A stretch of DNA of 32,279 bases, taken from Alloscardovia omnicolens DSM 21503. Lineage in GTDB: Bacteria; Actinomycetota; Actinomycetes; Actinomycetales; Bifidobacteriaceae. Shown in pieces: positions 12,881 through 22,277 of this stretch. The notes beneath the pieces are model-generated. The model was not told the DNA's origin, ran no database searches, and worked only from the letters and a program-made list of their open reading frames with translations. Both the position numbers and the translations under genes were made by a program. The stretch's first letter is position 1. The number at the start of each line of letters is the position of its first letter. The DNA is taken from assembly GCF_000420505.1 (NCBI RefSeq), contig NZ_ATVB01000018.1:1-32279 (forward strand), written 5' to 3'.

Positions 12881-12890
12881 GATTTACGAG

Positions 12891-18889: not shown

Positions 18890-18919
18890 TTTGCATATTT
18901 AGTATAAGTGAGAGATACA

Positions 18920-19588
18920 ATGAACACAGCAATATTAGTTGATGGTGGTTATTATCGGAAACGGGTAGCTAGCACTTTTGGTATTGAGTCTCCGAAGGAA
19001 ACAGCGGATAGATTATATAAGTACTGTTTTAGACATTTATATGAAAAAATTGACGGCAAAAATGTGCGCCATAATCTTTATAGAATTTTTTATTATGATT
19101 GTCACCCTATAGATAAAATTGTTTATCATCCCGCTACGCGTAAGCAGGTTGATCTTAGTAAGTCTGAGACAAAAGAGTGGGCTGAGGATTTTTATAATTG
19201 TCTTGCACATAAGCGTAAGGTGGCTTTACGCTTTGGTGAAATTAGCGATTCTAGTATTCATTATCGGATTAAAGATAAGGTTTTACGAAAACTTTTGAGG
19301 GGGACTGTTTCACTCGGTGAGGTGTCTGAGGAGGATTTTACTCTTGCGATGCAGCAAAAGGGTGTGGACATGCGTATTGGTTTAGATATTGCTTCATTGT
19401 CGTTTAAGCATCAAGTTGATAGTATTGTTCTTATTGCTGGTGATAGTGATTTTGTTCCTGCCGCTAAGCTTGCTAGGCGTGAAGGTATTGATTTTATTCT
19501 TGATGCTCTGGGTGGGAATATTCGTGACAATTTGTCTTTGCATATTGATGGGTTGCGTACTTGTGATGACAGTTTTAATGCAAAATGA
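18920..19588 (+). CDS. NYN-domain (LabA/DUF88-like) nuclease
   Basis: The protein has 222 residues from ATG 18920; an in-frame GTG 12 nt earlier is less likely. It carries the PIN-like NYN fold: NTAILVDGGYYRKR (Asp8), KGVDMRIGLDIASL (Asp150, Asp156) and VLIAGDSDFVPAAKLARREG (Asp175, Asp177). These acidic residues would bind the metal for RNA cleavage. It stands alone on the plus strand between late and lysogeny operons, with its own palindrome-rich upstream region, so it is probably expressed in the lysogen. Ribosome site is weak (GAGAG). A role against other phages is possible but not shown. Confidence 0.8.
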   Translation: MNTAILVDGGYYRKRVASTFGIESPKETADRLYKYCFRHLYEKIDGKNVRHNLYRIFYYDCHPIDKIVYHPATRKQVDLSKSETKEWAEDFYNCLAHKRKVALRFGEISDSSIHYRIKDKVLRKLLRGTVSLGEVSEEDFTLAMQQKGVDMRIGLDIASLSFKHQVDSIVLIAGDSDFVPAAKLARREGIDFILDALGGNIRDNLSLHIDGLRTCDDSFNAK

Positions 19589-20176: not shown

Positions 20177-20221
20177 AAAAGTAATGACTCGAGCTCATTA
20201 AACTCGAGTCATTACTTTTTA
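20177..20221. terminator. Strong bidirectional terminator
   Basis: AGTAATGACTCGAG (20180-20193) and CTCGAGTCATTACT (20203-20216) form a perfect 14-bp stem with a 9-nt loop. TTTTT follows on the plus strand and TTTTATG on the minus strand. It ends the repressor-exonuclease transcript and isolates the ImmA promoter. Confidence 0.9.
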
Positions 20222-20231
20222 ACTATGTGGA

Positions 20232-21410
20232 CTACTGTCTTTTCTTATATTTTCTTTTGTTCTTAAACATATGCCAACAGAGGAGACCGATTGGAATGCT
20301 GATGAGAAAAAGTGGAGGTGCGAGAAAGGATAATATTAACACGATTGCTTCTAATATGGTTAGGATTGTTAAAAGTGTTAAAAATACTATATATGCGGTT
20401 TTCTCCATAGGTTTTGTTTTAACAGTATTTTGCGTAGCACAGGCTTGTATTGAGGGTTTTATATTTGCTTTTACTTGATTAGTATTATGCGCGTATTCCC
20501 TTCGTGAATGAATTTTTCCTATTGGGCGTGATAGGTTATGTGGATCATTTTGTTCAATTGCTGTAATTCCGCGTTTTTTATCTACTTGTTTTTGGACGGC
20601 TAGTGTTGCTTTGCAGTCTGAGAGTGCGTTGTGAGCTACGTAATTGTGGTTGCATTCTTTTGCCGCTTCGGTGAGTTTATAGTAATCGGTATGGTGAAAT
20701 AGTTGTCCATATTCTCGCATGGTGTCTGTGACTTTGTCGATGTCGAATTTAAGTCCAAGTACAGCAAGAAAAGCTAGGTCGAAAGGTGCGTTATAGATAA
20801 CGATTTCTTGTGCTCTGTCGAAGATGTCTTGAAGTATAGTTAGGTCTTGGCGCGCAAATGGTTTATTTGCTACTTTCTTAGGTGTGATATGGTGGATTTT
20901 TTCAGCTTCTCGCCATGTTTTCTTTTTTTCTGGTTTGTAATAACGGTCGTGTAGTACGATGCCGTTGCCGTCGATAATGGAGATTTGGAGGAGCTCATCA
21001 TATTCTGGGGCTAAGCCTGTTGTTTCTGTATCGACGACTATTCGAGTGATTGGGGTGGTAATTTCTTTGTCTTTTTTTGGTGGTGTGAGAGTGATTTCGT
21101 GCATGATTCGCCCGTAATCATCGAGTGGACGTATTTTAATGCGGATGTCAAATATGGAGCCGTCTTTCACATCTTCGAGAGCGCTGTATGCGTTGCTAAT
21201 GTTAGGTGTGATGTCGAAGATGGGATTTCCTTTACTGTCGGAGAGTGTGATGCGCGGGTATTTTGCTCCATTACGTGGCGGTAAGGTGCTTTTGACGCAT
21301 TTTTTACGTGTTCCAGCTACTTCTTTGTAGTCGTTTGTGAGATATTTTTTAGAGATGGTGAAATGGATTTTTCCACTACCAAGGTTCATGAAGTAATTAT
21401 AGTTTGCCAT
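20232..21410 (-). CDS. DEDDh 3'-5' exonuclease with C-terminal membrane segments
   Basis: The protein has 392 residues in three parts. Residues 1-120 form a strand-rich domain I do not recognise. Residues ~122-275 form a DnaQ/RNase T-type exonuclease with ExoI VVDTETTG (Asp127, Glu129), ExoII IVIYNAPFDLAFL (Asp211) and ExoIII HNALSDCKATL (His260, Asp265). After a polar linker, residues ~338-382 make two hydrophobic helices, followed by a basic tail (FKNKRKYKKRQ). The nuclease would therefore sit on the inner face of the membrane. It lies between repressor and ImmA genes, where exclusion genes are often carried. Ribosome site is weak. Degradation of incoming DNA or RNA is inferred. Confidence 0.82.
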   Translation of the reverse strand: MANYNYFMNLGSGKIHFTISKKYLTNDYKEVAGTRKKCVKSTLPPRNGAKYPRITLSDSKGNPIFDITPNISNAYSALEDVKDGSIFDIRIKIRPLDDYGRIMHEITLTPPKKDKEITTPITRIVVDTETTGLAPEYDELLQISIIDGNGIVLHDRYYKPEKKKTWREAEKIHHITPKKVANKPFARQDLTILQDIFDRAQEIVIYNAPFDLAFLAVLGLKFDIDKVTDTMREYGQLFHHTDYYKLTEAAKECNHNYVAHNALSDCKATLAVQKQVDKKRGITAIEQNDPHNLSRPIGKIHSRREYAHNTNQVKANIKPSIQACATQNTVKTKPMEKTAYIVFLTLLTILTILEAIVLILSFLAPPLFLISIPIGLLCWHMFKNKRKYKKRQ

Positions 21411-21503: not shown

Positions 21504-21863
21504 TTATGCGCCGAAGTCGTCTAATTCTCGCTCAGATTCTTTATTAATATCCTCATTAGCAGCGAGGTCAAAGTCTTCGGAATAAGTATATTCGCGATTT
21601 TTGCTCATTTGGTTATATACTCGAGCGTTATTTACTAATTGGAATGCGCTGTCGAGTTTTAGCATGCTTGCAAGAATGTCTAGCTCATCTAGATTCCATG
21701 CTTTTAGTCCGCTTATGCGTAATCCTACATAACTTTTGGCACGTTTTAATTGTTCTGCAACATCATCATATGTTATTTGTTGCGATTGCAGTTCGTCATG
21801 TATGTATTTTGAAATTATCTCCGTTGTTTCTGTAGTTTCTGGGAGTTCATCTTTCCTTACCAT
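21504..21863 (-). CDS. CI-like phage repressor (HTH)
   Basis: The product has 119 residues from ATG 21863. The central HTH is ITYDDVAEQLKRAKSYVGLRISGLKAWNLDELDILASML (about 30-68). The tail is acidic and lacks the LexA-type protease domain, so relief of repression probably depends on ImmA. The frame is open further upstream to 21971 through the operators, but a -10 TATACT (21870-21875) lies 6 bp before this ATG and no ribosome site exists. I infer a leaderless transcript, as known for lambda cI. Its divergent partner is the Cro-like gene at 22032. Confidence 0.78.
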   Translation of the reverse strand: MVRKDELPETTETTEIISKYIHDELQSQQITYDDVAEQLKRAKSYVGLRISGLKAWNLDELDILASMLKLDSAFQLVNNARVYNQMSKNREYTYSEDFDLAANEDINKESERELDDFGA

Positions 21864-21869
21864 ATATTT

Positions 21870-21896
21870 AGTATACATTTGGGGCTTATATGTCAT
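21870..21896 (-). promoter_or_regulatory. Repressor maintenance promoter (leaderless)
   Basis: On the minus strand ATGACA (21891-21896) and TATACT (21870-21875) are 15 bp apart, a little short of ideal. The ATG follows the -10 closely, so the mRNA would start at or near the start codon. Operator 1 lies 15 bp upstream of the -35, where a bound repressor might stimulate it. Confidence 0.55.
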
Positions 21897-21911
21897 ATAG
21901 AGACACGCCGA

Positions 21912-21927
21912 AACCTCATATGAGGTT
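21912..21927. promoter_or_regulatory. Operator 1 (AACCTCATATGAGGTT)
   Basis: A perfect 16-bp palindrome. The core CCTCATATGAGG recurs at 21966 and 21999. Its right end overlaps the -35 of the rightward early promoter. Confidence 0.85.
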
Positions 21928-21954
21928 GATTTAATTACATGCATGTAATATGAT
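21926..21954 (+). promoter_or_regulatory. Early rightward promoter (PR-like)
   Basis: TTGATT (21926-21931) and TATGAT (21949-21954) are exactly 17 bp apart. The spacer contains the perfect palindrome ATTACATGCATGTAAT (21934-21949), possibly the site of a second regulator such as Cro. Operators 1 and 2 flank it, so repressor binding would block it. Confidence 0.75.
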
Positions 21955-21965
21955 TCTACTAACAG

Positions 21966-21977
21966 CCTCATATGAGG
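21966..21977. promoter_or_regulatory. Operator 2 (CCTCATATGAGG)
   Basis: This copy of the 12-bp palindrome starts about 5 bp past the expected transcription start of the early promoter. Its centre is 51 bp from that of operator 1. Confidence 0.85.
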
Positions 21978-21998
21978 TTTATATTTTTAGCCGAGAAT

Positions 21999-22010
21999 CC
22001 TCATATGAGG
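21999..22010. promoter_or_regulatory. Operator 3 (CCTCATATGAGG)
   Basis: The third identical palindrome, 33 bp centre to centre from operator 2, lies inside the leader of the Cro-like gene shortly before its ribosome site. In RNA it could also fold. Confidence 0.85.
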
Positions 22011-22031
22011 TTTACCAAAAAGGAGGTGGAA

Positions 22032-22277
22032 ATGAGTTCTCAGGATTATATAACGCAGGCAATTCGAGCAGAATTGGCGGCACGTGGTCTTACTAAGACT
22101 GGGTTAGCTGATTTTATGCAGATGGATAGAAGTTATTTGACGCGTAAGTTGTCTGGCTCAGTCCCTCTTAATACTCCAGAGCTGGATAAGATTTCACAAT
22201 TTTTAGGAATACCTATGTGGAACTTATTCTCTCTTGCTGCTGAGCGTGAGGTGCGTGACAAGAAAGCTGGTGAATAA
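22032..22277 (+). CDS. Cro-like HTH regulator
   Basis: This 81-residue XRE-family protein starts at ATG 22032 behind a perfect AAGGAGGTGG. The open frame back to 21972 only reads through operators. The HTH is LTKTGLADFMQMDRSYLTRKLSGSVPLNTPELDKISQFLGI (about 20-60). It is the first gene after the early promoter and divergent from the repressor, the place of Cro or an antirepressor. It may bind the same CCTCATATGAGG sites or the palindrome in the promoter spacer. Confidence 0.82.
   Translation: MSSQDYITQAIRAELAARGLTKTGLADFMQMDRSYLTRKLSGSVPLNTPELDKISQFLGIPMWNLFSLAAEREVRDKKAGE

What the first reader, a model, noticed from the sequence alone, without database searches (positions are those of the whole stretch)
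20232..21410. Membrane-tethered DEDDh exonuclease between repressor and ImmA
All five DEDDh residues are present, preceded by an unfamiliar 120-residue domain and followed by two membrane helices and a basic tail. Proofreading exonucleases are not membrane proteins. The immunity-block location and membrane anchor fit a superinfection-exclusion device that degrades DNA at the entry point. I know of no described system with this layout.
Basis: partly seen in the sequence, partly recalled or inferred. Interest (0 to 1): 0.6.

Follow-up and report, generated by a model that had tools for sequence, protein, structure and literature searches.

The report
Membrane-tethered exonuclease in prophage immunity block
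A dormant virus in a bacterial chromosome carries, beside the genes that keep it dormant, a DNA-digesting enzyme predicted to be anchored in the cell membrane, most likely to attack the DNA of other viruses as it enters.

Summary
The 392-aa ORF (20232-21410, minus) has a ~118-aa N-domain, a DEDDh exonuclease domain with all five catalytic residues, a hydrophobic C-terminal hairpin and a basic tail. It lies between a repressor-like and an ImmA-like gene of a siphoprophage. Seven of 189 genomes of the family carry the N-domain plus exonuclease: five keep the hydrophobic C-terminus, two end in an amphipathic helix instead. Five of the seven lie beside repressor, ImmA or integrase genes.

The pattern is wider than this family. 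In a 67-row tree the tethered/untethered label changes at least four times across well-supported branches. In 50 viral records (window not among them) tethered exonucleases have a same-strand HTH gene just upstream in 4 of 6 cases against 2 of 44 untethered (p=0.0009; 0.03 if every hydrophobicity flag is counted as a tether). A relative in another family is fused to a Pfam TM2 membrane domain.

Best reading: a lysogen-expressed superinfection-exclusion nuclease. The principle is in print for SNIPE (Nature 2026), which has a different nuclease, so this is a new variant of a known kind. A HIRAN-like fold for the N-domain has weak structural and no sequence support. Activity, membrane location and exclusion are untested.

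The parts
20232..21410 (-). Exonuclease ORF, 392 aa
21057..21410 (-). N-domain, residues 1-118, no Pfam family; found with the exonuclease in 7 of 189 family genomes
20595..21041 (-). DEDDh exonuclease domain, residues 124-272 (D127, E129, D211, H260, D265)
20334..20390 (-). Transmembrane helix 1, residues 341-359 (well supported)
20277..20333 (-). Transmembrane helix 2, residues 360-378 (probable)
20235..20264 (-). Basic tail, last 10 residues (KNKRKYKKRQ)
   Evidence: sequence
21504..21971 (-). Repressor-like protein, upstream of the exonuclease on the same strand, 93-bp gap; true start probably inside the ORF because two operator-like palindromes overlap its first codons
19646..20176 (-). 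ImmA-type metallopeptidase
20177..20219 (.). Long inverted repeat, reads as a bidirectional terminator between exonuclease and ImmA ORF (about -30 kcal/mol, z -9.9)
21914..22010 (.). Three perfect CCTCATATGAGG palindromes (21914, 21966, 21999), operator-like
21972..22277 (+). Divergent Cro/C1-type HTH gene

Best explanation
It is a superinfection-exclusion nuclease of the lysogenic state. The gene is read from the repressor promoter in the lysogen (inferred from position). The C-terminal hairpin holds the protein on the inner face of the cytoplasmic membrane with both ends and the catalytic domain in the cytoplasm (predicted: basic residues on both sides of a short uncharged turn). The DEDDh domain digests DNA from 3' ends (family knowledge). 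Tethered at the membrane it meets linear phage DNA as it enters, chews its 3' ends, for example the cohesive overhangs needed to circularise, and so stops the infection. The integrated prophage and the circular chromosome expose few ends and are spared (inferred). The N-domain would hold the DNA end or an entry protein (guess).
For: All catalytic residues present and invariant; exonuclease region dN/dS 0.044 in a close pair. Hydrophobic C-terminus kept in 5 of 7 family members, amphipathic helix in the other 2 (2 and 38 of 5000 shuffles as amphipathic). In G017 the order repressor-ImmA-exonuclease-integrase lies on one strand with 19- and 12-bp gaps; in G067 repressor-exonuclease-integrase; in G001 HTH-exonuclease-ImmA. 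Viral records outside the family: HTH gene-exonuclease with TM hairpin-serine integrase in L037, exonuclease with N-terminal TM-integrase in L078, repressor-TM protein-exonuclease with two N-terminal TMs-endonuclease in L035. Same-strand HTH_3 within 1.5 kb upstream: 4 of 6 tethered, 2 of 44 untethered, p=0.0009. Tether label changes at least 4 times over well-supported branches. One relative is fused to Pfam TM2 (E 7.8e-12). SNIPE shows that a membrane nuclease can cut DNA during injection (PMC13190303, abstract and passages).
Against: No activity, localisation or infection data. TM plus tail shows dN/dS about 1.0 (13.7 nonsynonymous, 4.3 synonymous) in the only close pair tested, so hydrophobicity may be kept but sequence is not. 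A strong hairpin separates exonuclease and ImmA here. No repressor, ImmA or integrase was found near the G041 copy and only an integrase remnant near the G021 copy. Proximity to a tyrosine integrase is not enriched in tethered exonucleases (1 of 6 against 3 of 44, p=0.41). L042, a tethered exonuclease, sits among tail genes, not by a repressor. The HTH association weakens to p=0.033 if all 13 hydrophobicity flags are taken as tethers and to p=0.0056 after roughly collapsing near-copies. Cohesive ends are inferred only from an HNH gene near the terminase.
Confidence: 0.48

Rival explanations
1. A membrane-sited exonuclease that acts on RNA or small oligonucleotides rather than incoming DNA, as an abortive-infection or signal-degrading enzyme triggered by infection.
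For: The fold also fits RNases: weak PDB sequence matches include ISG20 and nanoRNase C, and the Pfam family is RNase_T. Position by the repressor fits any lysogen-expressed defence.
Against: The best PDB sequence match is a PolC-type proofreading exonuclease, and membrane placement has no obvious use for an RNA substrate.
Confidence: 0.2
2. A housekeeping phage enzyme for DNA end processing in integration, excision or recombination; the lysogeny-module position reflects the integrase, and the hydrophobic C-terminus is incidental.
For: Integrase neighbours in G067 and G017 and in L037 and L078. PHROG names the family 'DNA polymerase exonuclease subunit'. TM region poorly constrained.
Against: Repeated, separate appearance of tethers with three layouts (N-terminal TM, C-terminal hairpin, TM2) in exonucleases beside HTH genes, and no enrichment of tyrosine integrase proximity.
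Confidence: 0.2
3. A regulator or helper of the repressor-ImmA induction switch, for example sensing DNA ends or damage at the membrane and triggering induction.
For: Lies between repressor and ImmA in the window and G001, directly follows ImmA in G017 and G008.
Against: G067 has repressor and exonuclease without a detected ImmA; a catalytic nuclease is not needed for such sensing.
Confidence: 0.12

Closest known systems
SNIPE (surface-associated membrane nuclease, Nature 2026, PMC13190303; abstract, outline and passages read)
   Same: Single protein, nuclease tethered to the inner membrane, proposed to act on phage DNA at entry; anchors vary between homologues and TM-less homologues carry other membrane-targeting parts.
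   Different: SNIPE is a GIY-YIG endonuclease with DUF4041 and an N-terminal TM; this is a DEDDh exonuclease with another accessory domain and a C-terminal hairpin. No sequence relation was tested or claimed.
PHROG 192 'DNA polymerase exonuclease subunit' / Pfam PF00929 RNase_T
   Same: Catalytic domain; the window protein aligns to PHROG 192 over residues 8-392 (E 7e-50).
   Different: The six other tethered or N-domain relatives scanned align to PHROG 192 mainly over the exonuclease part; of 51 viral ORFs taken from that search I accept 6 as tethered.
HIRAN domain (PF08797; HLTF, lp_0118)
   Same: Six of the first eight Foldseek rows for the N-domain model are HIRAN chains (3k2y, 4s0n, 6kcs). 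HIRAN is described as binding 3' ends of ssDNA and as fused to nucleases in bacteria (PMC4666394, passages).
   Different: E-values 0.09-0.37 and TM-scores near 0.33; no profile-profile or Pfam support.
HK97 gp15-type superinfection-exclusion morons (recalled; cited in the SNIPE passages)
   Same: Prophage-encoded membrane proteins thought to act at DNA injection.
   Different: Not nucleases.

Membership tests
DEDDh exonuclease (RNase_T/DnaQ-like) | Five catalytic residues D-E-D-H-D and the exonuclease fold | tested here: met
DEDDh exonuclease (RNase_T/DnaQ-like) | 3'-5' exonuclease activity | not testable with these tools
   needs protein
SNIPE | GIY-YIG nuclease domain and DUF4041 | tested here: not met
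   Pfam lists RNase_T, DNA_pol_A_exo1 and RNase_H_2 only
SNIPE | Membrane anchor with cytoplasmic nuclease | tested here: inconclusive
   anchor predicted by hydropathy at the opposite terminus; orientation only by charge
HIRAN domain (N-domain) | Sequence profile match to PF08797 or to HIRAN relatives | tested here: not met
HIRAN domain (N-domain) | HIRAN beta-barrel fold | tested here: inconclusive
   model pLDDT 63; Foldseek rows led by HIRAN but not significant; VIA-align Z 3.8 and 3.1, below unrelated rows
Superinfection-exclusion protein | Expressed in the lysogen from the immunity block | tested here: inconclusive
   position and association only
Superinfection-exclusion protein | Blocks DNA entry or establishment of a second phage | not testable with these tools
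   needs infection assays

The most novel reading that the evidence does not exclude
Temperate phages have repeatedly and independently tethered 3'-5' DEDDh exonucleases to the membrane and placed them behind the repressor, making a general class of lysogen-encoded entry-point exonucleases that erase 3' cohesive ends of incoming genomes; self is spared because integrated and circular DNA expose no ends, so no modification or sequence recognition is needed.
Probability: 0.3. Interest if true: 0.82.

Novelty: new variant of a known kind. Interest (0 to 1): 0.62.

Why it matters
If true, tethering a nuclease at the entry site is a general self/non-self strategy reached separately by bacteria (SNIPE) and by prophages with an unrelated enzyme. 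It gives simple predictions: cohesive-end phages sensitive, phages with protein-capped or circular genomes resistant, and escape by end protection. It also gives a likely role to part of a phage protein family now labelled 'DNA polymerase exonuclease subunit'.

Tried and rejected
HIRAN identity of the N-domain: first guessed from the strand pattern; not supported by Pfam, hhalign against five HIRAN segments, hhalign against a second domain of L182 or a PDB sequence search. Kept only as a weak structural lead. A C-terminal 'GKY' domain of other DEDDh proteins is HIRAN-related by hhalign (probability 72, E 3.4e-5) but does not link to the N-domain. An apparent second GKY match in the L182 HIRAN region was not significant (i-E 300) and was dropped.

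Strong constraint on the TM region: looked for and not found (dN/dS about 1). Enrichment of tyrosine integrase proximity: not found. Wider spread of the N-domain: in 396 order and 396 phylum genomes the listed matches outside the family cover only the exonuclease or exonuclease plus C-terminus. PADLOC: matches to a CRISPR-associated DEDDh model and to candidate PDC-S48 (E 1.3e-10) reflect the exonuclease domain. The tRNA-like hit at 12890 was not followed.

Selection of rows: of 80 viral loci I read ORFs for 51. 13 had a hydrophobic flag; I set aside six that lie in the exonuclease domain and L072, and report the test with L072 counted (4 of 7 against 2 of 43, p=0.002) and with all 13 counted (p=0.033). 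One search used 50 of the 51 (L107 left out because of a 50-locus limit). A version counting the L035 repressor found by PHROG gives p=5.7e-5 but is lopsided, since untethered records had no PHROG scan. The TM2 fusion was found last and by inspection, not as part of the test. The tree lacks L017, L068 and L090 (no motif) and duplicates L002 and L031.

Full report
OBSERVATION. The ORF at 20232-21410 (-) encodes 392 aa. RNase_T spans residues 124-272 (E 6.4e-17), and D127, E129, D211, H260 and D265 are present and invariant in seven homologues. AlphaFold gives a confident exonuclease domain (blocks mostly 86-97 pLDDT) that matches viral DEDDh models (89 matches with E<=0.001). Residues 341-359 form a clear hydrophobic helix (2.77; 2 of 2000 shuffles reach it) and 360-378 a probable second one. 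The last 20 residues carry net +7. Residues 1-118 match no Pfam family.

SETTING. The window is an IMG/VR provirus and contig 18 of a 1.85-Mb genome. It has terminase large subunit, portal, head protease and tape measure genes, endolysin, HNH endonuclease, RusA, primase-like and integrase genes. The exonuclease gene follows a repressor-like gene by 93 bp on the same strand and is followed by an ImmA-type peptidase. Three perfect CCTCATATGAGG palindromes mark the control region. A 61-nt stretch between exonuclease and ImmA folds at -30.1 kcal/mol, z -9.85, so ImmA may be transcribed apart from the exonuclease. The same DNA is found, 100% identical over 8.7 kb of aligned stretches, in an assembly titled Granulicoccus phenolivorans DSM 17626.

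RELATIVES. Of 189 genomes of the family, 23 match the protein and 7 carry N-domain plus exonuclease. G017, G067, G021 and G041, like the window, keep a hydrophobic C-terminus. G001 and G008 have none but end in an amphipathic segment (2 and 38 of 5000 letter shuffles as amphipathic). Neighbours: G017 repressor-ImmA-exonuclease-integrase; G067 repressor-exonuclease-integrase; G001 HTH-exonuclease-ImmA with an integrase further on; G008 ImmA-type peptidase-exonuclease, integrase about 3.3 kb away; G021 an integrase remnant only; G041 none found. So 5 of 7 lie in a lysogeny block.

THE N-DOMAIN ALONE. Related domains occur without the exonuclease: in G083 in a 397-aa protein with two N-terminal TM helices close to an integrase, in G159 in a 310-aa protein beside an integrase, and in G115 as an 85-aa ORF beside a SHOCT protein, ImmA and an HTH gene. 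The G159 link rests partly on alignment by eye. The domain thus belongs to prophage lysogeny regions and is twice paired with a predicted membrane anchor. Its own AlphaFold model is poor (pLDDT 63). HIRAN chains fill six of the first eight Foldseek rows (four are chains of one entry) but at E 0.09-0.37; VIA-align puts them below unrelated rows. Sequence methods give no support. 3k2y is HIRAN-like by sequence.

IS TETHERING GENERAL? From 80 viral loci I read 51 exonuclease ORFs; 6 have a hydrophobic anchor outside the exonuclease domain. L037 reads HTH-exonuclease (C-terminal hairpin)-serine integrase, L078 exonuclease (N-terminal TM)-integrase, L035 repressor-small TM protein-exonuclease (two N-terminal TMs)-endonuclease. 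A same-strand HTH_3 domain lies within 1.5 kb upstream in 4 of 6 tethered and 2 of 44 untethered cases (p=0.0009, built). It is 0.002 with L072 counted, 0.0056 after rough removal of near-copies and 0.033 with all 13 flags. Tyrosine integrase proximity is not enriched (1 of 6, 3 of 44). In a 67-row tree the untethered label needs 6 changes, at least 4 forced by well-supported branches, gains or losses; the window's clade of 7 is well supported. L042 instead sits between tail genes and the likely tape-measure gene, overlapping a small TM protein. A relative in another family of the phylum is fused to Pfam TM2 (E 7.8e-12, above cut-off).

MECHANISM. Shown: domain content, conserved catalytic residues, recurrent hydrophobic anchors, recurrent position behind repressors. 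Inferred: transcription in the lysogen, cytoplasmic orientation, action on DNA at entry. Guessed: trimming of 3' cohesive ends, and the N-domain's role. The HNH gene near the terminase is compatible with cohesive ends but does not show them. Against: TM and tail evolve freely (dN/dS about 1.0 against 0.044 for the exonuclease, one pair, small counts), and two of the seven family loci lack intact lysogeny neighbours.

COMPARISON. SNIPE (PMC13190303) is a GIY-YIG nuclease held in the inner membrane that cuts phage DNA during injection; 59% of its homologues have one TM, 7% two, and TM-less ones often carry other membrane-targeting domains (passages). The present protein works by the same principle if the reading is right, but fails SNIPE's defining domains, so it is not a member. 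Literature searches (one open-licence full-text library) showed me no DEDDh version in their listings.

VERDICT. Observation confirmed, interpretation partly supported, a new variant of a known kind. The recurrence of tethers beside repressors is the most interesting part and is testable.

Noticed in passing
18908-19588 (+): NYN-domain protein (PF01936; PHROG 5783) convergent with ImmA; its DNA is 66% identical over 722 bp to Streptococcus phages Javan84/85 and up to 76% over 164 bp to a Lactococcus phage, in an actinobacterial-type prophage.
   Followed up: no
L148:7712-8851 (G008): A second DEDDh exonuclease gene lies just behind the first in the same immunity block, with a C-terminal domain shared with L022, L024 and L182 that is HIRAN-related by hhalign.
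   Followed up: partly
L182 (G148): 281-aa protein with an N-terminal TM helix, a Pfam HIRAN domain and a second related domain.
   Followed up: partly
L175:8976-10169 (G083): Two-TM protein carrying the N-domain without exonuclease, close to an integrase; no Pfam family.
   Followed up: partly
L042:5941-7136: Tethered exonuclease overlapping a small TM protein, between a tail assembly chaperone and the likely tape-measure gene: the place of exclusion morons (recalled).
   Followed up: no
L155:8722-9750 (G666): DEDDh exonuclease fused to a TM2 domain; a resolvase gene lies about 2 kb away.
   Followed up: partly
L147:7677-8905 (G001): DUF6978 and DUF1828/DUF1829 genes between ImmA and integrase.
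   Followed up: no
L002: Window DNA appears at 100% identity in an assembly titled Granulicoccus phenolivorans; the window's genome is 1.85 Mb with window G+C 44%, so a mixed assembly is likely.
   Followed up: no
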